DNA of 64,000 bases from Piscinibacter sp. XHJ-5 (GTDB lineage Bacteria > Pseudomonadota > Gammaproteobacteria > Burkholderiales > Burkholderiaceae_C): contig NZ_CP123228.1 of NCBI RefSeq assembly GCF_029855045.1, positions 2,232,001 to 2,296,000 of the forward strand, written 5' to 3'. The notes under the pieces are model-generated. The model was given only the letters and a program-made list of their open reading frames with translations, made no database searches and was not told the DNA's origin. Below, piece by piece: positions 46,131 to 64,000 of the stretch; position 1 is the first letter of the stretch, and each line of letters opens with the position of its first letter. A program made the position numbers and the translations under genes.

Positions 46131-46599
46131 TCCCCGGCGCGAGCTTCGTGGCGGCCGGATTCCAACTCGCTGGGCTTCACTTTGGCTCATGGCGTGCTGC
46201 TCGGCGCGTACGGCAGAAGGCGTCCGGCCTGGCGCACGCACCGTGATGGCAGCAAGACTCTCCGGCGTGAACACTACGGCCATGGTGGCCAGCGTGACCA
46301 CGGCGCGGATGCGGCGGTCGGGCGCCGACGCGGGCCGTGATTGCGGCACGGCGGCGCTGGCGGCGAAAGCGGCTTGACCGCCGCTCTCAGGACTTGAAGC
46401 TGACTTGAGTTTCCATGTTCGCAGCGCCTCCATCGACTCGATGGAAGCCCTCGCAGAACATTTCAGTTTTCTTGCGACCCCTTGAAGACCTGGCGGGCTC
46501 GGGTGCAGATAGTGGGAACGTCTTCAGCGCTTCCCGTTCTGTGCCCCGCGACTGCGCTGTCGGCACCCCACCCATCGGATCTTGCCAAAGGAGAACATC
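46131..46599. other. Non-coding stretch upstream of the FG-GAP protein gene
   Basis: About 470 bases hold no convincing gene. Short open frames on both strands lack ribosome-binding sites and known motifs. The only structure noted is the sequence at 46387-46403, which resembles one at 51049-51068. Confidence 0.5.
46387..46403 (+). promoter_or_regulatory. Candidate regulatory motif shared with 51049-51068
   Basis: TCAGGA, CTTGAAG and CTGA occur in order here and, with small insertions, at 51049-51068; both are preceded by CCGCT. Each copy lies upstream of an FG-GAP protein gene flanking the large regulator at 47995-50970. Binding by that regulator is a guess from position. Confidence 0.35.
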
Positions 46600-47958
46600 T
46601 TGGCCACTGCCTATCGACCGCGCACCCTGGCGCCTCGCAAACTCGCCGGCTGGCTCGCGACGCTCGCGGCCGCACTGTCCACGCTGCCCGCGGTCGCTGC
46701 TCCGGTGGGACCGGCCAAGGACGAAATCAGGCTGGTCAAGCAGGCCGGCGCTTTGATGATGCCGTGGCTGGTCATCGCGAAGAGCGGCCAGCCCTTCGAT
46801 GTGCGACTCCAGTCGGATCCGGGCGCCACCGACCTCGCCGTCTCGGCGATGGCTTCGAACGGTCTGGTCGACATCGTGGCAGGCGACTTCAATGCTGACG
46901 GATTGCAGGACCTGGCGCTGCTCAATCGCGCCCGCAACAGCGACTTCACGCCTGTCTGGACCAGCATGCGCATCGCGTTCGCGAACGCCGACGGCACCGT
47001 GCGGATGAGCTCCACTCCCATCGGGCAATTCGCGAACTACCTGGCCCAAGGGTATGGCGAACCGGTTGCCGGGGACTTCAACGGCGATGGCCGCCTGGAC
47101 ATCGCCTTGATCGACTTCGAAGGCCAGCCGGCCGAATTCCGCGACACGGTGCCCATGCTCCTCAGCCGAAGCGACGGCACCTTCGCCGACGTGATCTGGC
47201 ATGTCGGCGGGAGCAACCCCTTTTTCCGGTATCCCGCCGCCCGGATCGTTCCGGGCGAGTTCATTCCCAGCACCGACGGAGTGCGCCGGACCGACGTGGC
47301 CCTCCTGCGCGAGTGCGGCCAGCCGACGATTCCGCTCCTCCATTCCCAGTCGTCGGGGGTCGGCGTCGTTCACGCGCCGGCACAGTATTTCGAGGCCTAC
47401 TGTCCGGATGGGGGGACACAGTTGGTGACCGGCGACTTCAACGGTGACGGCCTGACGGATCTGGCGAAGTTCTCCGGTGGCGCGTTGATCGTCGCGACTG
47501 CGGGAGCGGGGGTCTTCACGGTGGTGTCGGTGACGGGTGGGACGTTTGCCCAACGTGCCCCGAACTCGAAGATCGTCACCGGCCGATTCGATGAAGGTCC
47601 GACCACCGACATCGCGCTCATCGACAGGACCGGCATCGCCGTTGCCTTCGGCGACTCGAACGCCCAGTTCACCGTGCGCGAGCATCTGTCGCCGACGTTC
47701 GCGGCGTGGGCCTTCGCTCCCGGCGCGACCCCCTATGTCGGCGATTTCGACGGCAATGGACAGGACGACATCGCGCTCATCCAGCGATATCCCGGCACGG
47801 ACTGGACCACCGTGCCCATCGCTTACTCCCACACCGACCGTCTCCCGGGTGGACGGCGCGCGTGGCGGCAGGCGGTCGAGAACCAGGTGGCTCCCGGATT
47901 TGTCGACCAGGCCAGGGCGACGGCGACCCGCGTCTTCGTCGGCAAGTTCGGGCAATGA
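46600..47958 (+). CDS. Secreted FG-GAP/VCBS-repeat protein
   Basis: This 452-residue protein has a signal peptide (ends near AVAA, residue 34) followed by at least four calcium-loop repeats: GDFNADGLQDLALL, GDFNGDGRLDIALI, GDFNGDGLTDLAKF and GDFDGNGQDDIALI. These build an integrin-like beta-propeller. A paralogue is at 51377-52744. The start is a TTG with AAGGAG six bases upstream. Such proteins are extracellular or surface-bound and often mediate adhesion or binding. The large regulator gene converges from the right. Confidence 0.82.
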   Translation: MATAYRPRTLAPRKLAGWLATLAAALSTLPAVAAPVGPAKDEIRLVKQAGALMMPWLVIAKSGQPFDVRLQSDPGATDLAVSAMASNGLVDIVAGDFNADGLQDLALLNRARNSDFTPVWTSMRIAFANADGTVRMSSTPIGQFANYLAQGYGEPVAGDFNGDGRLDIALIDFEGQPAEFRDTVPMLLSRSDGTFADVIWHVGGSNPFFRYPAARIVPGEFIPSTDGVRRTDVALLRECGQPTIPLLHSQSSGVGVVHAPAQYFEAYCPDGGTQLVTGDFNGDGLTDLAKFSGGALIVATAGAGVFTVVSVTGGTFAQRAPNSKIVTGRFDEGPTTDIALIDRTGIAVAFGDSNAQFTVREHLSPTFAAWAFAPGATPYVGDFDGNGQDDIALIQRYPGTDWTTVPIAYSHTDRLPGGRRAWRQAVENQVAPGFVDQARATATRVFVGKFGQ

Positions 47959-47994: not shown

Positions 47995-50970
47995 TCAGCG
48001 TCTGCTGAGACGCGGCTGTGCTCCTTCGGCGCCCGCGTCCGAGCCGATGAGCAGATCCTCGGCCAATGCGTGGGCTTGCGTGTCGGTGAGGTTGGCACCG
48101 GCGCGCCGAAGAGAAGCCATGGCGGACGGAGACATCGCTGCCCCGACCAGTTCGGCGGCCAGCCCCGTGGATCGCACTTCGCCCGGTTCCAGCGTGAGCT
48201 GGCGTGCGGGAAACCATGCCTCGACATAACCAAGCAGCCTGGCCGCGCTCTCGTATCGCGAGAGTCTTGCGGCCAGCAGCGACAGGTGGGAACAGATGTA
48301 GCCCGAGATCTTGTTGCGCCAGGCCTCCGGCAAGGCTTCGAGCGCAGCTGACCGGGCCGAGGGCAGGTCGCCCTTGCCGAGCAAGGCTGCAAACAGGTTG
48401 AGCTGGGCCACGGCGGTCATTTGCGGCAGGTCGAGGGTGCGCACCTCCTCGACCACCCGGCGCCCGAGTTCGATCGCTTCGTCCCAATCGCCCGCCATCA
48501 GGGCCGCATCTGCCAGATTGAGCCGTGCGTTCACGGCCTGACACGGCGAGGCCGCCAACTCGGCGTATCGCAGCTCGTCGCGAACGCTGGCGCGATAGCC
48601 AACGACATCGGCACGGTAGGCGTGAACCCTCGTTCGATGGCTCGCGGCCAGCCAATGTCGCCGCGGCGACCAGTCCGGCTGCTCGAGCGGCTGGGCAAGC
48701 GCCAAGGCTTCCAGCGCTTCGTCGAAGCATGCGCTCATGGCCGAGACAACAGCCACGTTCAGCAGCGCTTCACATAGCCGATCACGGTCGCCCAGTTCCC
48801 GGAAGGCGGCTGCAGCGATGCGCGCCGACTGCAGCTTGGGCAACTGAGGCACCCCCGCCACGAAATGGGCAGAAAAGCGCAGGTGCAAACGCGCCCGCGC
48901 CATCGGGCTTGCCGCCGGCACGACCCCGATGGCGGACCGAAGATGCAAATGGATGGCAGCCAGGTTGGCACGCAGATGGTCCAACCGGGACAGCGCGTCC
49001 AGCGTCGCCGCAGCGACATCGGCCGAGCCGCCTTCGCACGCACGCTTGAAGGCCATCTGGATGTCCTCGTACTCCGGCGCATACCGAGCCAGCCAGGCCG
49101 CGTCCGGCATGACCCAATAGGCATCGTCGCACTCGTCGGCCAGCGCCGTCATGGCCTGCGCATGCCCTTGCAAAACTGCTTCGGTCTCACCGCTTTCCGA
49201 GAGTCTCTCCGCGGCGTACAGGCGGGTCGTCTCCAGCAGTCGGTAACGCGGCGGCTCCCTCTGCTCCAGTTGCACGAGCGACTTGTCGACCAGGCCGGCC
49301 AAGGCGTCGAGCGCGGACCATTCGTCGAGATCCTGCGATCCCGCGACACGCTGCGCCATGTCGAGCCGGAAGCTCGCAGCAAACACCGACAGCCGTCGCA
49401 GCACGACTCGTTCGTCGGCGGTCAGAAGTGCGTGGCTCCAATCGAGGGTGGCCACCAGCGTCTGCTGGCGAGCGGGCGCCGTCCGGCTGCTGCCCCTCAG
49501 CAGACGAAGACCATCAGCGAGATGAGCGTCGATTTCAGCCAGTCCGAGCAGGGGCAGGCGGGCGGCCGCCATCTCGATGGCCAGAGCAATGCCGTCGAGC
49601 CGCCTGCACAGCCGGATCGCCACGCCGATGTTGGCGGGCGTCAGCGCAAAGCGGCGATCTGCCGCCGCTGCTCGATGCTCGAGCAGCTGCAGCGCGCTGT
49701 ACTTGCGTGCCTCGTCGATGGGCGCATCCGGCGGCGGCAAGGCCAGCGGATCCAGCCGGTAAACCTGCTCGTGCGCGGCCTTCAGTGTCTCGCGCGAGGT
49801 TGCCACGATGCGAAGCCGCGGCGCCGCAGCCATCGCGGCCTGCACGAAGCTCGCGATCTCGCTTGCGAGACGCTCGCAGTTGTCGAGCACCAGCAGCGTT
49901 TCGCGCGGCTCCAGCAGATGCATCAGCGCTGCGGCGGCGTCCCCGGGCCCGAGCTGCAGGTTCGTGGCATGGGCCACCGCCACGGGAATGCCCTCGGCAG
50001 AAGCGACACACGCCAGATCGACCCACCACACCCCATGGGTGAACTTGCCGGCGAACCCCCGGGCCAGGGCCTGCGCCACCCGGGTCTTGCCGATGCCGCC
50101 CGCGCCCAGCAGCGTGACCAGCCTGTGCTCGCCCACCAGCGCGGTGAGCGTGTCCAGGTCGTCCCCGCGGCCGAAAAGTGCTTCCGCGGCCGCGGCCAGG
50201 TTGGTCATCCGCTGGACAGGGGGGACCAGGCTCGACGCCGGCGCTGCCTGCCTCGCTGGTGGGGAGGCAAGGTCGCCAGGGGGTGCGATGAAACGGTAGC
50301 CGCGGCCGGGAATCGTCTCGATCAGCTGCACGCCGAGCAGCTTGCGCAGCGTCGAGATCTGCGTCTGCAGGTTGTTCTCTTCCACCACGACGCCGGCCCA
50401 AACGCGCTCGAGGATCTCCTGCTTGGTGACCAGGCGCGGGCGCAGCTCGATCAGCATCGACAGCAGGTCGAAGGCGCGCGATCCCAGGGCGGCCGGCTGG
50501 CCGCCGAGAAGCACTTTTCGCTCCCTGGATCGCACCTCGACATTGCCGAAGCGCAGCGAAAGCGGTGCGCGCGCGTCCGCGGGCATGGTGCTCGCCGGAG
50601 GTCCCGACGGCGCGGCGCCGGATGCCCCGCGGCTCGCATGGCCGACGGCTTCTCCCGCAGCGCTGTCATCGCCATCGTCCACCGTCATCGTGAAGCGGTA
50701 GCCGCGCCCTGCAATGGTGGCAATCGCACCGGCGCCGAGCACCGTGCGCAACGACGAGATCTGCGCATGCAGATTGTTCTCGCTGACGGCACGACCGTTC
50801 CATGCCAGGCGCAGCAGCTCCTCCTTGGAAACGACCCGGTCCCGGCGCTCGATCAGCGCCAGCAGCACGTCGAACGCACGTTCGCCCAGCGCGGCGGGCC
50901 GCCCATCGATGAGCAACAGGCGTTCGTCGGCGTGGACTTCATGGCGACCGAAGCAATGCACCCGGGCCAA
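47995..50970 (-). CDS. Large regulator: two winged helices, STAND ATPase, helical repeats
   Basis: The 991-residue protein has two OmpR/PhoB-type winged helices (about residues 4-95 and 138-229, each ending in GRGYRF) joined by a 42-residue linker. A STAND NTPase follows, with P-loop GAGGIGKT (289-296), LLVLDNCERL as Walker B, and VATSRETL, then a long alpha-helical TPR-like region. Such proteins work as ligand-gated, ATP-dependent transcription switches. It is a paralogue of 59768-63241, which has a cyclase domain in place of the linker. The start is a TTG after GAGGAGGG. It lies between two FG-GAP genes. Confidence 0.88.
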   Translation of the reverse strand: MARVHCFGRHEVHADERLLLIDGRPAALGERAFDVLLALIERRDRVVSKEELLRLAWNGRAVSENNLHAQISSLRTVLGAGAIATIAGRGYRFTMTVDDGDDSAAGEAVGHASRGASGAAPSGPPASTMPADARAPLSLRFGNVEVRSRERKVLLGGQPAALGSRAFDLLSMLIELRPRLVTKQEILERVWAGVVVEENNLQTQISTLRKLLGVQLIETIPGRGYRFIAPPGDLASPPARQAAPASSLVPPVQRMTNLAAAAEALFGRGDDLDTLTALVGEHRLVTLLGAGGIGKTRVAQALARGFAGKFTHGVWWVDLACVASAEGIPVAVAHATNLQLGPGDAAAALMHLLEPRETLLVLDNCERLASEIASFVQAAMAAAPRLRIVATSRETLKAAHEQVYRLDPLALPPPDAPIDEARKYSALQLLEHRAAAADRRFALTPANIGVAIRLCRRLDGIALAIEMAAARLPLLGLAEIDAHLADGLRLLRGSSRTAPARQQTLVATLDWSHALLTADERVVLRRLSVFAASFRLDMAQRVAGSQDLDEWSALDALAGLVDKSLVQLEQREPPRYRLLETTRLYAAERLSESGETEAVLQGHAQAMTALADECDDAYWVMPDAAWLARYAPEYEDIQMAFKRACEGGSADVAAATLDALSRLDHLRANLAAIHLHLRSAIGVVPAASPMARARLHLRFSAHFVAGVPQLPKLQSARIAAAAFRELGDRDRLCEALLNVAVVSAMSACFDEALEALALAQPLEQPDWSPRRHWLAASHRTRVHAYRADVVGYRASVRDELRYAELAASPCQAVNARLNLADAALMAGDWDEAIELGRRVVEEVRTLDLPQMTAVAQLNLFAALLGKGDLPSARSAALEALPEAWRNKISGYICSHLSLLAARLSRYESAARLLGYVEAWFPARQLTLEPGEVRSTGLAAELVGAAMSPSAMASLRRAGANLTDTQAHALAEDLLIGSDAGAEGAQPRLSRR

Positions 50971-51068: not shown

Positions 51069-51149
51069 AAGGCGCCTTGCGGCAGACAGTCTCCCTGCCC
51101 GCCGCATTCGCGACCGGCCCTTTCATCTGCCACCGACCCAGGAGTCAAC

Positions 51150-51380
51150 ATGAAGCTGCTTCCCCGTCGCGTCCGCCCGGACAACCTCCATCGCATCTGT
51201 CTGATGGCCTCCATCGCAGCGGCCGTCGTGCTCATCACTGCCTGCGGTGGCGGTGGCGACGCGACCACGCCGGAGGCCGACGGTTCCGCGGATCCGACGG
51301 CCGTGCGAGTCGACTCGTCCCTTTCGACGAGCCAGGTCGCGCGCATGCAGGCTCCCGGGGTCCAGAAGGTGCAACCGTGA
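51150..51380 (+). CDS. Small lipoprotein of unknown function
   Basis: The 76-residue product has a basic N-terminus, a hydrophobic stretch (LMASIAAAVVLITA) and a lipobox ending ITAC, followed by GGGGDATTPEADG as a flexible tether. It would be lipidated and held in a membrane. AGGAG precedes the ATG. Its stop overlaps the GTG start of the FG-GAP protein, so the two may act together, for example as anchor and propeller. Confidence 0.75.
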   Translation: MKLLPRRVRPDNLHRICLMASIAAAVVLITACGGGGDATTPEADGSADPTAVRVDSSLSTSQVARMQAPGVQKVQP

Positions 51381-52744
51381 GAAGCATCCGCTGCAACCGC
51401 AAGCCCATGGCGGCGCTGGTCGTCGCGTTCGTGGCCCTCACATCGGCGGCGGCGCATGCCGATCTGTTCGTCTGGGGCCAGCGCGCAGACGACATCAGGC
51501 TGGTGAACCGTGCGCCCGGGTGGAACACGGTTCCGCTCGCACTCACCCGAAATGGCGCCGCCTTCGAGGTCCGCAATCCGACCAGCACGCTGGTCGCGCA
51601 ATTCGCGACGGCGGCGGCCACGCCCGGGATGGCGCTGCTCCAGGGTGACTTCGACGGCGATGGCCGCGCCGACATGGCGCTGCTGAACACTGCCATCAAC
51701 GGGCAGGTGCAGGCGATGCTCGTTGCCTATGCCAATGCCGACGGCACCCAGCGCATCGAGAGTCGTTCGATCGGCCAGTTCGGCATCTGGGCGACCAGCC
51801 CGGGCGTCGAGCCGGTCGTCGGCGACTTCAATGGCGACGGGCGCAGCGACGTGGCACTGATTCGTCGCGAACCGGGTTGGGCGAGCGCGCCGGTCCTGCT
51901 CAGTCGCAAGGACCTCGGCTTCGATGTCGCCAACTGGCCGCTCGGGTCGTTCGCCGGCTGGGCGACCGAGGCTGGCGCAGAGTGGGATTCCGTTCGCCTC
52001 GTGGCGGGTCGCTTCGACAGCGACAGCCTGACGGACCTCGCCCTCGTTCGGCCCTGCGGCTCGTGGACGGACATCCGGGTGGCGCACGCGCTGCCGTCAG
52101 GAGGCTTTCGCGTCCAGGGCTACCCGGCCGGCCAGTTCCTCGGCCGCGCCTGCGCGTACGTCGGCGCATCGAACGTCGTCACCGGCGACTTCGACGGAAA
52201 CGGGATGACCGATTTCGCGGCGTTCGCCAACGGCGAGCTCGTGCTGGCCCGGGCCACCGGGAGCGGGTTCGCCACGTCGATTCCGATCTCCGGCGGCTTC
52301 GCCCAGCGGGCGGCGGGCGCCGTGGTGCTGACCGGCAGGTTCGACGCCGGGGCAAGCACCGACATAGCGCTGGTCAACACATCCGGCTCCTGGAACAGCA
52401 TCGCGGTCGCGTTTGGGCTGTCGAACGGCCAATTCCAGACCTTCGACGTGACGGCGGGGAATTTCCCCGTCTGGGCGGCGCAGGGTGCGCAGCCCGTGGC
52501 GGGCGACTTCGACGGCAACGGCATGTCCGACATCGCGCTGCTTCCGAGAAGCGGCATGGCCTGGAAGACGATTCCAGTCGCCTACATGGGCTACAACGCG
52601 CGGCCCGATTGCAGCGGCGACGTCTGCAGCAACACGGGCACGGCCACGCCGTGGTTCTCGGTGCAGAACCAGGCGGCACCGGATTTCGTCGACTGGGCCA
52701 TGGTCGACAGCGCGCAGATCCTGGTCGGGGAGTTCGGCCGCTGA
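51377..52744 (+). CDS. Secreted FG-GAP/VCBS-repeat protein
   Basis: The 455-residue protein has a signal peptide ending AAAHA (about residue 27) and repeats GDFDGDGRADMALL, GDFNGDGRSDVALI, GRFDSDSLTDLALV, GDFDGNGMTDFAAF, GRFDAGASTDIALV and GDFDGNGMSDIALL, the calcium-binding loops of an integrin-like propeller. It is a paralogue of 46600-47958, and both have a DEIRLV/DDIRLV opening after the signal peptide. A GTG start overlaps the lipoprotein stop. Confidence 0.82.
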   Translation: MRSIRCNRKPMAALVVAFVALTSAAAHADLFVWGQRADDIRLVNRAPGWNTVPLALTRNGAAFEVRNPTSTLVAQFATAAATPGMALLQGDFDGDGRADMALLNTAINGQVQAMLVAYANADGTQRIESRSIGQFGIWATSPGVEPVVGDFNGDGRSDVALIRREPGWASAPVLLSRKDLGFDVANWPLGSFAGWATEAGAEWDSVRLVAGRFDSDSLTDLALVRPCGSWTDIRVAHALPSGGFRVQGYPAGQFLGRACAYVGASNVVTGDFDGNGMTDFAAFANGELVLARATGSGFATSIPISGGFAQRAAGAVVLTGRFDAGASTDIALVNTSGSWNSIAVAFGLSNGQFQTFDVTAGNFPVWAAQGAQPVAGDFDGNGMSDIALLPRSGMAWKTIPVAYMGYNARPDCSGDVCSNTGTATPWFSVQNQAAPDFVDWAMVDSAQILVGEFGR

Positions 52745-57991: not shown

Positions 57992-58801
57992 TCACCGGCG
58001 CGTTTCAGGGGCGTCCGACCGATTGAACACCAGCGCGCCCAGCGCACGTGCATGGGCCTCGGTGCAGACGGCGCCGACGTTTCCGCGCAAGCGGGCCGAA
58101 CGCTCCTCCAGGGCACTCAACGTCGCCTTGCCGGCCACCCGCACATGGTGGACGCAGACAGCGCCATGCTCGTCCCAGCCCGCCTCGAAGGCCTGATCGG
58201 GCGCTTCGACGGGATCCGCGATTCCGAGCCGGTCGTGCACCTTGATGCGGCGACCATCGACCGTGTACGGCATGCCCGACCCGGTGTAGTCGGCGCGGAC
58301 CATCCGCACGCAGGCGTTGAAGGCGGCGAGCAGGGTCCCGCTGCCCGGCGCTGGCTGCCAGGGCGCGTACCCGACGGCCAGGCACTTCGCAAGCGCACCG
58401 CCGGTGCAGCTGATCGCGAACGCGCCGGCTTCGGCCGCCAGGGAGCCGTCCGCCCGTTCGCGGCCAGGCAGGACGACGGCATGGCGCGAGCCATCGCTGT
58501 GGGGCCGGCACAGCGGCTGCCACTCCTTCCCTGGCCACTTCACCGAGAGGTGGTGGGCCCACCAGCTGCGGCCCTGTGCACGGACCGGCTCGACGGCATC
58601 GATGCGCAGCAGGGCGCCGCTGTCCAGGCGGATCTGCGCGCCCACGAGATCCGCCGATCGCAGCCGCGATCCGTCAGGCGCTTGAAGCACCCATTCGGTG
58701 CCTTCGGCCCGCAAGGCAGCGGTGGGCTCCGCGGCGATCGTCGCAGTGCCGGACCAGGCGGTGAACAGAGCGACAAGGCAAGCGGTCGGCAATGCACCCA
58801 T
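57992..58801 (-). CDS. Exported ADYC-type protein
   Basis: The 269-residue product has a signal peptide (to about residue 24) and a C-terminal part with ACVRMVRADYTGSGMPYTVDGRRI, which resembles the ADYC domain of secreted proteins from proteobacteria and myxobacteria, here with Thr instead of the signature Cys. Several other cysteines suggest disulfides. GGAG precedes the ATG. It lies 37 bp after another small exported protein gene, forming a likely pair. Function unknown. Confidence 0.65.
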   Translation of the reverse strand: MGALPTACLVALFTAWSGTATIAAEPTAALRAEGTEWVLQAPDGSRLRSADLVGAQIRLDSGALLRIDAVEPVRAQGRSWWAHHLSVKWPGKEWQPLCRPHSDGSRHAVVLPGRERADGSLAAEAGAFAISCTGGALAKCLAVGYAPWQPAPGSGTLLAAFNACVRMVRADYTGSGMPYTVDGRRIKVHDRLGIADPVEAPDQAFEAGWDEHGAVCVHHVRVAGKATLSALEERSARLRGNVGAVCTEAHARALGALVFNRSDAPETRR

Positions 58802-58838: not shown

Positions 58839-59177
58839 CTAGCGCAGCCTGAGCTCGCCCCGATCCAGGAGGCGGATCGATGTCGGCTGCGCCAGCGAGC
58901 CCCTCGAGACGTCGCGCAGGCACCGATCCATCACTTGCCGCGAGGACCACAGCCGGAAGTCGGACGGCTCGCTTTCTTGCGCATTCGGGTCGGCGACCAT
59001 CATCGCGGGGCAGCGCAAGAAGTCGTTGGTCGAGATGCCGTTGGCGGAGGTGCCATTGGACAGAATCGCGCCGCCTTGCGCGCCGACGTCGTTGGGCTGG
59101 GCATGGGCCGAAAGCGTGGCCGTCATGCACAGGGCGGTCAGGGCGGTGGCGCAAAGCGTGCGGAAGGTCGGGTTCAT
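58839..59177 (-). CDS. Small exported protein of unknown function
   Basis: This 112-residue protein has a signal peptide ending AHA (residue 26). The mature part holds two Cys residues (FLRCPAMMVAD and VMDRCLRDV) that could form a disulfide. GAGGA precedes the ATG. It is probably cotranscribed with the ADYC-type gene downstream. No family recognised. Confidence 0.65.
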   Translation of the reverse strand: MNPTFRTLCATALTALCMTATLSAHAQPNDVGAQGGAILSNGTSANGISTNDFLRCPAMMVADPNAQESEPSDFRLWSSRQVMDRCLRDVSRGSLAQPTSIRLLDRGELRLR

Positions 59178-59548: not shown

Positions 59549-59767
59549 GGAGAACCTCGCGTTGATGCATCCGGCGATGCGTTGAAAGGAGTGCGCACTG
59601 TCTCGCCGGACGGCACGGGGTGTCCTCAATCCAGCTGAAGACATCCTGGAAGTTGCTGAAACGCTCGCGCATGGCGATACGCCCGTCACGGCCAGATCGA
59701 ATTGCCCCGCGATGCAGCTTCCGCGCTAAATTCGCTGGCACGCGCATGTCCGTGCAAGGAGGGCTCC

Positions 59768-62700
59768 TTGGCGCCATCGTTTCGCTTCGGCCGCTGCGAG
59801 GTGCGGCCCGACGAAAGGCTGCTGCTGGTCGACGGCCAGCCCGTTGCGCTGGGGGCCCGGGCTTTCGATCTGCTGCTGGCGCTGATCGAGCGCAGGGACC
59901 GGGTAGCCACGAAGACGGAGCTCCTGGAGGTGGTATGGAGCGGCCTCGTGGTCAGCGAGAACAACCTGCAAACCCAGGTGTCCAGCCTCAGAGCGTTGCT
60001 CGGTGCGCAGGCGATTGCGACGATTGCAGGGCGTGGCTACCAGTTCGCAATGCCCCTGGACAGCGAGTGCGGGGACGTCGTGCCGCTCGTTCCCGCAACG
60101 GAAGGAGTCGCGCCCTCGGCCCGCAAGCTCGCCGCGATCATGAGTGCCGACGTCGTCGGGTATTCGCGGCTCATGGGCGAGGACGATGTCGCGACGCTCC
60201 ATGCCATTGTGGCCGTGCGCGGTGTCGTTGCTCAGCAAGTGGCGCACCACGGCGGCAAGCTGGTCGACGCCACGGGAGACGCGCTGCTGGCCGAGTTTCC
60301 GAGCGCGGTCGAGTCGGTGCGCTGCGCGTCAGCGGTCCAGGCGGCGCTGGCGCAGCGCAATGCGTCCATCGCGCAGAACCGACGCATGGTGCTGCGCATC
60401 GGCCTGAACGTGGGCGACGTGATCCAGCAGGACGGTGCGCTCTATGGCGAAGGCGTCAATGTCGCGGCGCGGCTGCAGGCACTCGGTGAGCCGGGCGGCG
60501 TCTGCATTTCGGGGTCGGTTTTCGACCAGGTCGACGGCCGGTTGCCCATGCAGTTCCGATTCGCCGGCGAGCAGAACGTCAAGAACATCTCACGGGCCGT
60601 TCGCGTTTACCACGCCGGTGAGCCTCCAGCGCCCGGGGAGCCTGTGCCGGCCGCGGCCGAGCGAACCGGTCATCGGTTCGGGAATTGCGAAGTTCGCTCC
60701 GCGGAACGCCTGCTGCTGGTGGCCGGTGAACCGGTGAAGGTGGGACCCCGCGCTTTCGATGTCCTGCTCGCGCTGATCGAGCATCGAGAGCGCGTCGTGA
60801 CCAAGAACGAACTGCTCGACCTGGTCTGGCCCGGGCTGGTGGTCGAAGAGAACAACCTGCCGACGCAGATCTCCACCTTGCGCAAGCTCATCGGGCCTGA
60901 AGCCGTCGAAACCGTGCCGGGAAAAGGCTACCGGTTCGTCGCGCAGCTCGACGACGGGAAGTCAGCCGCATCCGTCATCACGGCTGCGCCGGAACCGAGC
61001 CGCGCCACCGATGTCCCCACCGTGCGCCACACGAATCTGCCAGCTGCAGCCGAAGCGCTTTTCGGCCGCAGCCTGGACATCGATGCATTGGACGAGCTCG
61101 TGTCCAGGCATCGGCTCGTCACCGTCCTGGGCGCAGGCGGCATCGGCAAGACGAGCGTCGCGCAGGCGCTGGGACGGCGGCTTGTGGGCCGGTATGCGGA
61201 CGGCGTGTGGTGGGTGGACCTGGCAGCGGCGGGCTCGGCCGAGAGCGTCGAGCTGGCCATCGCCAACGCTGCCGGGTTGCAGCCGGGTCAAGGTGATTCG
61301 CGCGAGCTGCTTCTGGATGCGCTCGCTGCGCGCGAGACGGTCCTGGTGCTGGACAACTGCGAGGCGCTGGTTGGCCTGCTCGCCGGCCTCATCGAAGCGG
61401 CGTTGGGACGCGCCCCGAAGCTGCGGATCCTCTCGACGTCGCGCGAGACTCTCAAGGTGGCAGACGAGCAGGTCTATCGGCTCGAGCCGCTGACTGTCCC
61501 GCCCGAGGGCGCTTCGCTGGACGAGGCGCGCGATTGCAGCGCGCTGCAATTGTTCGAGCGACGCGCGAAGGCGTCTGATCGTCATTTCGCATTGAGCGGC
61601 GACAACCTGGCGACCGCGATCCGTGTATGCCGCAGTCTCGACGGCATCCCCCTCGCCCTCGAGATGGCCGCCGCCCGGCTGCCGCTTCTTGGCCTGGCGG
61701 AGCTCGATGCGCGGCTGGCGGCACGCTTGCGGATGCTCAAGAGCAGCAGCCGCTCCGCACCTGCGCGGCAGCGAACGCTGCAGGCAACGCTGGAGTGGAG
61801 TCATTCACTGCTGACCGTGGAGGAGCAGGCGGTGCTGCGGCGACTCTCGGTGTTTGTCGCGACCTTCCGCCTCGAATCGGCCCGGCACGTGGCCGCATGT
61901 GCCTCGCTGGACGAGTGGAGCGTCGTCGATGCGATGTCCGGGCTGGTGGACAAGTCGCTGGTTCATGTAGAGCCGTCTTCCCAGCCGCAAAATCCGACCC
62001 GCTACAGACTGCTCGAGACGACACGCCTGTTCGCCGCGGAGCGGCTCGCCGAGCATGGTGAGGGGCCGCAGGTGCAGCGACGCCACGGCGAGGCGATGGC
62101 CGAGCGCGCCGATGAGCTGGAGCGCGACTATTGGTCCTTGGCCGATGGCCCGTGGCTGGCGCTCTACGCGCCGGACTATGACGATCTGCAGTCGGCGTTC
62201 GCGTGGGCGTGCCGGCAGGTCGATCCCGATGTGGGGGCGGCAACACTGGAAGGCCTGTTCAAGCTGGATCACCTGCGCGCGAGCTTCGTGGCCATGATGC
62301 CCTGGTTGCATGCTGCCATCGTGTTGTTGCCCCATGCGTCCCCGTTGGCGCGCGCCCGCATCGGTTTGCAGCTCGTGCACTCGTTCGTGGAGAAGATTCC
62401 GGCCATCCCGAAGGATGCTGCGGCGCGGCAGGCACTCGACGACTGCCGCATGCTGAACAATCGGCGTCGGACCTATCAGGCGCTGCTTGCGCTCGCGACC
62501 GTGAGAGCCATGGCCGGCTCGTTCGAGGCGGCCAACGAGGCCCTGGCCGAGGCCGTTGCCCTGCGGTTGCCGGATTGGCCACCGAGATTGCACTGGCTCG
62601 CCGCCGAGCATTGCAAGGAGGTGGCGATGTATCGCGGCGACGCCGATGCCTACCGTGCCGCGTTGCGCGAGCAGCTCCCGCTCGCCGAGCAGGCCGGCTC

Positions 62701-63241
62701 ACCTTGCCAGGCGGCGAACGTTCGCACCAACCTTGCCGACGCCGCGCTGATGGCCGGCGAGTTCGAAGAGTCGATCGCGCTCGGACGCGCGGCGGTTGCC
62801 GAAACGCGTGCCTTGGGACTGCCGCAAATGAACGCCGTGGCGTTCCTCAATCTGTGTGCGGCGCTGGTCAGGCACGGTGACTTGGCGTCGGCGCGTGCCG
62901 TTGCGCTGGATGCACTGCCGCACGTGTGGCGGCACCGGCTGTCCGGGTGGTTCCTGTGCCACCTCGCGCTGCTGGCAACCGGGCTCTCGCAACACCAAGA
63001 TGCGGCCCGCATGCTGGGCTACGTAAACGCTTGGTGCTCGGCGACCGGGTTGCAGATGCAGTCCAACGAACTGCATGCCGTGCAACTCGCGAGAGAGTCG
63101 ATCCGCAAGGCACTGGGTGCTTCGACGCTCTCCGCGCTGACATCGGCCGGCGCGCAACTGTCCGATACGCAGGCCTATTCGATGGCCGAGGCCATGTTGA
63201 GGCATGCGTCGCGCAAGCGCGTCGCGGCGCGGGAGGCATAG
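59768..63241 (+). CDS. Large regulator: winged helix, class III nucleotidyl cyclase, winged helix, STAND ATPase, helical repeats
   Basis: The 1157-residue protein opens with an OmpR-type winged helix (about 5-95). Residues 117-285 form a class III adenylate/guanylate cyclase domain with metal-binding Asp128 (SADVVGYSRLMGEDD) and Asp171 (ATGDALLAEF) and the transition-state pair Asn231 and Arg235 (NVAARL), so it looks active. A second winged helix (303-393), a STAND NTPase with P-loop GAGGIGKT (455-462) and LVLDNCE, and TPR-like helices follow. The rest is collinear with 47995-50970. The start is a TTG with AAGGAGGG just upstream. A cyclase between two DNA-binding domains is highly unusual. 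Confidence 0.9.
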   Translation: MAPSFRFGRCEVRPDERLLLVDGQPVALGARAFDLLLALIERRDRVATKTELLEVVWSGLVVSENNLQTQVSSLRALLGAQAIATIAGRGYQFAMPLDSECGDVVPLVPATEGVAPSARKLAAIMSADVVGYSRLMGEDDVATLHAIVAVRGVVAQQVAHHGGKLVDATGDALLAEFPSAVESVRCASAVQAALAQRNASIAQNRRMVLRIGLNVGDVIQQDGALYGEGVNVAARLQALGEPGGVCISGSVFDQVDGRLPMQFRFAGEQNVKNISRAVRVYHAGEPPAPGEPVPAAAERTGHRFGNCEVRSAERLLLVAGEPVKVGPRAFDVLLALIEHRERVVTKNELLDLVWPGLVVEENNLPTQISTLRKLIGPEAVETVPGKGYRFVAQLDDGKSAASVITAAPEPSRATDVPTVRHTNLPAAAEALFGRSLDIDALDELVSRHRLVTVLGAGGIGKTSVAQALGRRLVGRYADGVWWVDLAAAGSAESVELAIANAAGLQPGQGDSRELLLDALAARETVLVLDNCEALVGLLAGLIEAALGRAPKLRILSTSRETLKVADEQVYRLEPLTVPPEGASLDEARDCSALQLFERRAKASDRHFALSGDNLATAIRVCRSLDGIPLALEMAAARLPLLGLAELDARLAARLRMLKSSSRSAPARQRTLQATLEWSHSLLTVEEQAVLRRLSVFVATFRLESARHVAACASLDEWSVVDAMSGLVDKSLVHVEPSSQPQNPTRYRLLETTRLFAAERLAEHGEGPQVQRRHGEAMAERADELERDYWSLADGPWLALYAPDYDDLQSAFAWACRQVDPDVGAATLEGLFKLDHLRASFVAMMPWLHAAIVLLPHASPLARARIGLQLVHSFVEKIPAIPKDAAARQALDDCRMLNNRRRTYQALLALATVRAMAGSFEAANEALAEAVALRLPDWPPRLHWLAAEHCKEVAMYRGDADAYRAALREQLPLAEQAGSPCQAANVRTNLADAALMAGEFEESIALGRAAVAETRALGLPQMNAVAFLNLCAALVRHGDLASARAVALDALPHVWRHRLSGWFLCHLALLATGLSQHQDAARMLGYVNAWCSATGLQMQSNELHAVQLARESIRKALGASTLSALTSAGAQLSDTQAYSMAEAMLRHASRKRVAAREA

Positions 63242-63579: not shown

Positions 63580-64000
63580 ATGCAATGCGCGCTCATGCTT
63601 CGTCTTGCCACGGCATCGTTGGTCGCCGGGAGCGTCCTGCTGGCCAACGCCATGCCTGCTTCCGGCAGCCTGCCGTCGAAAGTCGACCTGACGGCCACTC
63701 AGACGCCGTTTCGCAACCAGGGTGCGCGTGACACGTGCACCGTCTTTGCGGCGGTTGCAGCCGTCGAGGCCGCATACATGCGCAAGTACGGGCTCTCCCT
63801 CGACCTGTCCGAGCAATACCTCAACCACGTCCAGAAGTCCTTCTGGCTCAACTTCAATCAACCGCTGCCTTTCGCCGAGATTCAACCGGAGACCAATGGC
63901 GGGGGCACCATCGGGTGGCAGTTCGCGGTGCTGGGCCGTTACGGCCTGCCTCCGGAAAGCAGCTTGCCGTACATCGGTGACGGGAGCTGGCAGAACCTTG
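63580..64000 (+). CDS. Papain-like (C1A) cysteine protease, N-terminal part
   Basis: The frame runs off the window after 140 residues. A signal peptide (about 1-25) is followed by a short segment and VDLTATQTPFRNQGARDTCTVFAAVAAVEA. This matches the papain active-site region PVxNQGxCGSCWAF, with the nucleophile at Cys53 and Asp-Thr in place of Gly-Ser before it. The following LSEQYLNHV and GGGTIGWQFAVLGRYGLP also fit C1 peptidases. No inhibitory propeptide of normal length is visible. It lies downstream of the cyclase-containing regulator. Confidence 0.75.
   Translation, partial: MQCALMLRLATASLVAGSVLLANAMPASGSLPSKVDLTATQTPFRNQGARDTCTVFAAVAAVEAAYMRKYGLSLDLSEQYLNHVQKSFWLNFNQPLPFAEIQPETNGGGTIGWQFAVLGRYGLPPESSLPYIGDGSWQNL

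What the first reader, a model, noticed from the sequence alone, without database searches (positions are those of the whole stretch)
59768..63241. Nucleotidyl cyclase domain between two winged helices of a STAND regulator
The order wHTH, class III cyclase, wHTH, STAND ATPase, helical repeats puts second-messenger synthesis inside a DNA-binding protein. The metal-binding Asp pair and the Asn/Arg pair are present, so it may be active. Cyclic nucleotide production could depend on DNA binding or ATP state, coupling gene choice to signalling in one polypeptide.
Basis: partly seen in the sequence, partly recalled or inferred. Interest (0 to 1): 0.75.

Follow-up and report, generated by a model that had tools for sequence, protein, structure and literature searches.

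The report
Cyclase inside a STAND gene regulator
A bacterial switch protein that looks built to sense a signal and bind DNA carries, between its two DNA-binding parts, an intact-looking enzyme domain for making a cyclic nucleotide messenger, and the residues that normally choose ATP are replaced, so the messenger may not be cAMP.

Summary
One uninterrupted frame, 59768-63241 (+), TTG start behind AAGGAGG, 1157 aa, encodes wHTH - class III cyclase - wHTH - STAND NTPase - helical repeats; an AlphaFold model (mean pLDDT 90.8) shows a complete cyclase fold between flexible linkers. It is not two joined genes: 8 of 192 listed proteins, this one included, have the order, and a cyclase-free tandem-wHTH paralogue lies 9 kb away. 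The metal Asps (D128, D171) and Asn/Arg (N231, R235) are present. Acid plus small residue resembles guanylate cyclases, though Asp replaces their Glu. Best reading: an AfsR/MalT-like regulator whose ATP-driven assembly pairs the cyclase domains and releases a cyclic nucleotide, more likely cGMP (or cUMP) than cAMP. Activity, product, DNA dependence and ATP coupling are untested. Cyclase-HTH fusions are known in mycobacteria and wHTH-STAND-TPR in AfsR; the insertion between tandem wHTHs and the Asp-small pair are the new parts. A new variant of a known kind.

The parts
59756..59762 (+). ribosome-binding site AAGGAGG, 5 nt before the TTG start
   Evidence: read directly
59768..63241 (+). whole gene, 1157 aa
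   Evidence: highest coding score of the window (scored as 59702-63241; this gene was in the training set)
59783..60049 (+). first wHTH (residues 6-94), OmpR/PhoB type
   Evidence: own profile HMM E 2e-43; two Trans_reg_C stretches
60116..60619 (+). class III nucleotidyl cyclase domain (residues 117-284)
60149..60151 (+). metal Asp D128
60266..60268 (+). Asp167 at the adenine-selecting Lys position
   Evidence: aligned to Lys of 3mr7 and of Ma1120
60278..60280 (+). metal Asp D171
60437..60439 (+). Ala224 at the adenine-selecting Asp position
   Evidence: aligned to Asp of 3mr7 and of Ma1120
60458..60460 (+). transition-state Asn N231
60470..60472 (+). transition-state Arg R235
60674..60940 (+). 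second wHTH (residues 303-391)
   Evidence: own profile HMM E 7.9e-44; Pfam Trans_reg_C
61037..61972 (+). STAND/NB-ARC NTPase (residues 424-735); Walker A K461, Walker B D529-N530
62078..63235 (+). TPR-like helical repeats (residues 771-1156), presumed sensor
   Evidence: model secondary structure; STAND-TPR protein 6mfv
47995..50970 (-). cyclase-free paralogue wHTH-wHTH-STAND-TPR, 991 aa
   Evidence: 56% identity over the wHTH2-STAND-TPR part, 60% over the first wHTH region

Best explanation
It is a one-component transcription regulator of the STAND class (AfsR/MalT-like). The helical repeats sense an unknown ligand; the NTPase then swaps ADP for ATP and the protein assembles. Assembly presents two wHTHs per chain for tandem DNA sites and brings two cyclase domains together, which class III cyclases need for activity, so the regulator emits a cyclic nucleotide while it is switched on. 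From the Asp-Ala base pocket the product is more likely cGMP, or else cUMP, than cAMP. Shown here: architecture, predicted fold, catalytic residues, family-wide substrate-pair change. Inferred: activity, product, assembly and its link to DNA or ATP.
For: Domains. Model pLDDT 90.8 with low-confidence linkers 100-115, 291-298, 398-418; fold matches to Apaf-1, the STAND-TPR protein 6mfv, 8bob chain C of the maltose system, and cyclases 3mr7, Ma1120, Cya2. Walker A K461 and Walker B D529-N530 invariant in 7 of 7 aligned W-C-W-STAND proteins; the other six are 41-62% identical to the first. Metal Asps, N and R kept in 7 of 8 W-C-W-STAND proteins. Asp at the Lys site in 107 of 119 cyclase domains, with Ala, Ser or Thr at the Asp site in 106 of those 107. 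In 154 domains: Asp-[A/S/T/R] 110, Lys-Asp 24, Asn-Asp 12, other pairs 8, no Asp-Asp. GC pairs are Glu-Cys or, in Cya2, Glu-Gly (passages of PMC4215837); Glu at the Lys position usually indicates GCs (passages of PMC4886424). The proven GC XC_0250 has Ala150 seven residues before its Asn position 157 (passages of PMC3770947), the same spacing as A224 to N231. AfsR: ATP binding relieves inhibition by NOD and TPR (passages of PMC10936776).
Against: No assay. Asp is shorter than the Glu of known GCs; the residue before the Arg is Ala234, not the Tyr that raises GC activity in Cya2, and the Ma1120 triple mutant (Glu, Gly, Tyr) ended up with equal preference for ATP and GTP, not as a GC (passages of PMC4215837). 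P0121 and P0006 lost catalytic residues, so the domain can persist without them. No cyclic-nucleotide receptor was found among the 26 other neighbouring frames scanned (some of these frames are not real genes). The Asp-[AST] rows are not one clade in the quick tree; holding them together costs 23.4 log units but is not rejected (p-AU 0.235). Of 38 cyclase rows from genome loci 27 are Lys-Asp or Asn-Asp. One row outside that set, L038, reads Asp-Asp in a gapped, doubtful alignment.
Confidence: 0.5

Rival explanations
1. The cyclase domain is a catalytically dead nucleotide sensor or dimerisation unit: it binds NTP and helps two regulators pair, without making a messenger.
For: The adenylate-type substrate pair is gone. 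P0121 (W-C-W-STAND) and P0006 (C-W-W-STAND) kept the domain but lost catalytic residues. The paralogue does without the domain.
Against: Among the 107 domains with Asp at the Lys site, the metal Asps are kept in 105 and 105, Asn in 106 and Arg in 106 (two rows have a gap at the first site); decay would not keep them, nor change the pair in a coupled way.
Confidence: 0.22
2. It is an adenylate cyclase with a non-standard base pocket, as reported for mycobacterial Rv0386.
For: Rv0386 has an alternative substrate-binding mechanism (said in PMC3466318, passages). Of 38 cyclase rows from genome loci 17 are Lys-Asp, and 3mr7, about 40% identical, is Lys-Asp.
Against: The Asp-small pair is conserved and coupled across the family, and an acidic side chain is a poor partner for adenine N1/N6 (chemistry, inference).
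Confidence: 0.2
3. It is a uridylate cyclase related to Pycsar PycC.
For: BcPycC uses Asp94 in UTP recognition, and in EaPycC the specificity residue R142 lies four before metal Asp D146, the spacing of D167 to D171 here (passages of PMC11224242). Weak PADLOC PycC matches, best E 4.3e-5. Whether D94 sits exactly at the Lys position was not checked on sequence.
Against: Weak matches of a kind that other class III domains could give (P0074 scores alike); no CNBD effector gene among the neighbouring frames scanned, though a CNBD-TIR protein lies about 18 kb downstream; the host protein is a STAND regulator.
Confidence: 0.08

Closest known systems
Mycobacterial cyclase-LuxR fusions (Rv0386, Rv1358, Rv2488c)
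   Same: A class III cyclase and an HTH in one chain; Rv0386 also has an alternative substrate-binding mechanism (passages of PMC3466318). That a STAND NTPase lies between the two is recalled.
   Different: LuxR-type HTH, C-terminal by recall; here two OmpR-type wHTHs flank the cyclase and no GerE domain is found.
Streptomyces AfsR
   Same: OmpR-type DNA-binding domain, STAND NTPase and TPR in one chain; ATP relieves inhibition of transcription activation (passages of PMC10936776).
   Different: AfsR has one OmpR-type domain plus a BTA domain; no cyclase is mentioned in the passages seen. Here two wHTHs, no BTAD hit, and a cyclase.
MalT
   Different: LuxR-type HTH at the C-terminus and no cyclase (recalled).
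Bacterial guanylate cyclases Cya2 and XC_0250
   Same: Class III domain with a pocket that is not Lys-Asp in Cya2; XC_0250 has Ala at the second site, as here.
   Different: Cya2 has Glu-Gly; XC_0250 lacks the Asn/Arg pair and is cyclase plus TPR (passages). No wHTH-STAND in either (Cya2 by recall).
wHTH-cyclase-TPR proteins such as P0074, several of the kind named adenylate cyclase by a source
   Same: OmpR-type wHTH followed by a cyclase; 14 of 17 W-C proteins have Asp-Thr with all four catalytic residues.
   Different: No STAND NTPase found, one wHTH, mostly about 690 aa.

Membership tests
Class III nucleotidyl cyclase | cyclase fold and Pfam Guanylate_cyc over cut-off | tested here: met
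   (fold of a predicted model)
Class III nucleotidyl cyclase | two metal Asps and transition-state Asn/Arg | tested here: met
   D128, D171, N231, R235
Adenylate cyclase | Lys-Asp (or Lys-Thr) adenine-selecting pair | tested here: not met
   Asp167-Ala224
Guanylate cyclase | Glu plus small residue at the same pair | tested here: inconclusive
   small residue met, the acid is Asp and not Glu
Guanylate cyclase | makes cGMP from GTP | not testable with these tools
   needs an assay
STAND NTPase | Walker A/B and NB-ARC fold followed by a helical sensor | tested here: met
OmpR/PhoB-type wHTH regulator | Trans_reg_C domain | tested here: met
   two stretches
OmpR/PhoB-type wHTH regulator | sequence-specific DNA binding | not testable with these tools
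   needs an assay
SARP (AfsR) | BTA domain after the wHTH | tested here: not met
   no BTAD among the Pfam hits at E 0.01; the wHTHs are followed by the cyclase and by the NTPase
Mycobacterial cyclase-LuxR fusions | LuxR-type HTH | tested here: not met
   no GerE among the Pfam hits at E 0.01
Pycsar | PycC beside a CNBD-effector gene | tested here: not met
   weak PycC scores; no CNBD among the neighbouring frames scanned; the nearest CNBD-TIR protein found is about 18 kb away

The most novel reading that the evidence does not exclude
A family of class III cyclases joined to wHTH and STAND modules, several of them named adenylate cyclase by their sources, has jointly switched its base-selecting pair from Lys-Asp to Asp-[Ala/Ser/Thr] and makes cGMP or cUMP. 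In the W-C-W-STAND members the messenger is made only by the assembled regulator, possibly on DNA, so gene choice and messenger output come from one complex.
Probability: 0.3. Interest if true: 0.78.

Novelty: new variant of a known kind. Interest (0 to 1): 0.55.

Why it matters
Only a few putative guanylate cyclases are described in prokaryotes (stated in PMC4215837, passages). If the Asp-[AST] proteins make cGMP or cUMP, a group of proteins now named adenylate cyclase is misnamed and a new substrate code is defined. The fusion would also give a direct test of whether a STAND regulator can emit a second messenger when it assembles, with a natural cyclase-free paralogue in the same genome as control.

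Tried and rejected
Sequencing error joining two genes: rejected; no stop in the frame and seven other proteins with the same order. Other species: the one genome-contig scan gave 6 loci, none with the full order. A search of 399 genomes of the family with profile A2 listed only the own genome over positions 1-1182, but two candidates per genome were scored and the list is cut, so lower-ranked cases could be missed; the 11 other-genome loci taken from it were W-STAND (10) or W-W-STAND (1), 0 of 11 with a cyclase. The other seven W-C-W-STAND proteins come from ena, jgi or lgn entries on contigs of 4.4 to 12.5 kb without an organism name in the listing.

DNA target: repeats in the gaps upstream and downstream gave a few two-copy families and one imperfect inverted pair, and nothing in the gap upstream of the paralogue; not pursued. 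Pycsar: weak PADLOC scores only. cNMP receptors: 18 matches in the genome, 17 over the cut-off, none assigned to this protein. The translations were of one strand only and useful for L068 and a few others.

Literature: the ten searches listed no paper whose title or abstract start describes this architecture or an Asp-[AST] substrate pair; I saw listings, and passages of seven papers. PMC2447327 is held without its body text. Castro et al. 2005 on Rv0386 was seen only as a citation inside PMC3466318.

Rows dropped: one search left out 4 of the 120 cyclase rows (119 plus 3mr7): P0121, P0110.1, P0117 and one short row; its 38 locus rows come from 39 loci and include the own gene once more (L006). 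One search read one strand of 30 loci and found 16 cyclase rows; one search repeated this on both strands. In one search the Lys site reads D 107, K 6, N 2, Q 1, E 1, A 1, gap 1.

Full report

How common. Profile HMMs on 193 sequences (192 listed proteins plus the window paralogue) gave W-S 61, C-W-S 42, C-S 36, W-C 17, W-W-S 13, W-C-S 12, W-C-W-S 8, C-W-W-S 2, others 2. P0116, counted as W-S, appears to be the same paralogue with a shorter predicted start. These are the best-listed hits of two searches (2827 and 2083 hits), so the shares are not unbiased. The modules are widely shuffled and this order is rare. In 399 genomes of the same family only the own genome showed a full-length match in the list (two candidates scored per genome).

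Origin. The paralogue at 47995-50970 (-) is W-W-STAND-TPR without a cyclase: 56% identity over the common C-terminal part and 60% over the first wHTH region. Its TTG start also has AGGAGG a few nt upstream (sequence printed). This fits a cyclase inserted into the linker of a tandem-wHTH regulator, or lost from one; the direction is not shown. P0007 shares cyclase, second wHTH and STAND with the C-W-S protein P0011 at 94, 93 and 87% identity and its cyclase sits elsewhere in the quick cyclase tree, so the order arose at least twice, or parts were exchanged.

Catalytic site. Metal Asps D128 and D171 and N231 and R235 are present. The pair that selects adenine in adenylate cyclases aligns to D167 and A224; in Ma1120 these sites are K101 and D157, changed to Glu and Gly in the mutant 5d0g. 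That triple mutant became equally specific for ATP and GTP, not a pure guanylate cyclase (passages of PMC4215837). Over 119 cyclase domains the Lys site is Asp in 107 and Lys in 6; among the 107, the other site is Ala 45, Thr 32, Ser 29, Arg 1 and never Asp. With 154 domains, including 38 rows from genome loci, Asp pairs with A/T/S/R in 110, Lys with Asp in 24, Asn with Asp in 12, other pairs in 8. One row outside that set, L038, reads Asp-Asp in a doubtful, gapped alignment. The two sites therefore change together, which speaks for altered base choice and not decay. On the quick tree the first site needs 5 changes between acid and non-acid and the second 8 changes; one clade for the 108 Asp-[AST] rows is not rejected (p-AU 0.235). 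Of the genome's 7 Guanylate_cyc hits only this one is Asp-Ala; the others are Lys-Asp (2), Asn-Ser (3) and Lys-Thr (1).

Against. 1 of 8 W-C-W-STAND proteins, P0121, has lost all four catalytic residues, and the C-W-W-STAND protein P0006 has lost three of the four. No assay was found or run. Asp is not the Glu of known guanylate cyclases, and the Tyr that raises GC activity in Cya2 is Ala234 here. No cyclic-nucleotide receptor is among the 26 other neighbouring frames scanned: recognisable are FG-GAP proteins, peptide ABC transporter genes, an ADYC protein, a papain-like protease, a GNAT enzyme, a LuxR regulator, BrkB, an AMP-binding enzyme, a nitronate monooxygenase, a beta-lactamase-family protein, DUF72 and the paralogue. 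The genome has 18 cNMP-binding matches elsewhere; one, L068, is a CNBD-TIR protein about 18 kb downstream.

Mechanism. STAND proteins are presumed to be held as inactive monomers and released by inducer and nucleotide exchange; in AfsR, ATP binding relieves inhibition by NOD and TPR (passages of PMC10936776). Class III cyclases work as dimers (passages of PMC4886424). Joining these, I infer that assembly of the regulator also forms the cyclase sites. The product is predicted from the pocket: an acidic side chain can accept hydrogen from guanine N1/N2 or uracil N3 and fits adenine poorly (chemistry, not a call).

Verdict. A real, rare domain order built from known modules, with a conserved change of the substrate-selecting pair that my ten literature searches did not turn up. 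New variant of a known kind; interest 0.55.

Noticed in passing
L068:721-2706 (own genome, about 18 kb downstream of the gene, outside the window): A 661-aa single chain with cNMP_binding (E 7.7e-11) and TIR_2 (E 1.6e-21) and, by my own reading of motifs only, a class III cyclase-like N-terminus: it looks like a one-chain Pycsar-type cyclase, receptor and effector. PADLOC gives a PycTIR match (E 1.3e-5) and a PycC match that falls on the CNBD part (E 6.1e-4).
   Followed up: partly
own genome, G000: An expansion of wHTH-STAND regulators: 33 matches to the wHTH2-STAND segment, 14 of them (this gene included) covering the NTPase part.
   Followed up: partly
window 47995-50970 (-): The database protein P0116 (897 aa, same contig size) appears to start 94 residues later and so to miss the first wHTH; a TTG with AGGAGG supports the longer start.
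   Followed up: partly
window 46582-47958 (+) and 51077-52744 (+): FG-GAP repeat genes on both sides of the cyclase-free paralogue.
   Followed up: no
window 57992-58801 (-): ADYC-domain protein (E 5.7e-40) upstream of the regulator on the opposite strand, beside a short ORF at 58839-59177 (-) without Pfam hits.
   Followed up: no
window 63580-63999, continued in L134:581-2176 (+): Papain-family (Peptidase_C1) protein, 531 aa, directly downstream on the same strand; a possible target gene, untested.
   Followed up: no
P0119: A W-STAND protein with a second wHTH-like match near its C-terminus.
   Followed up: no
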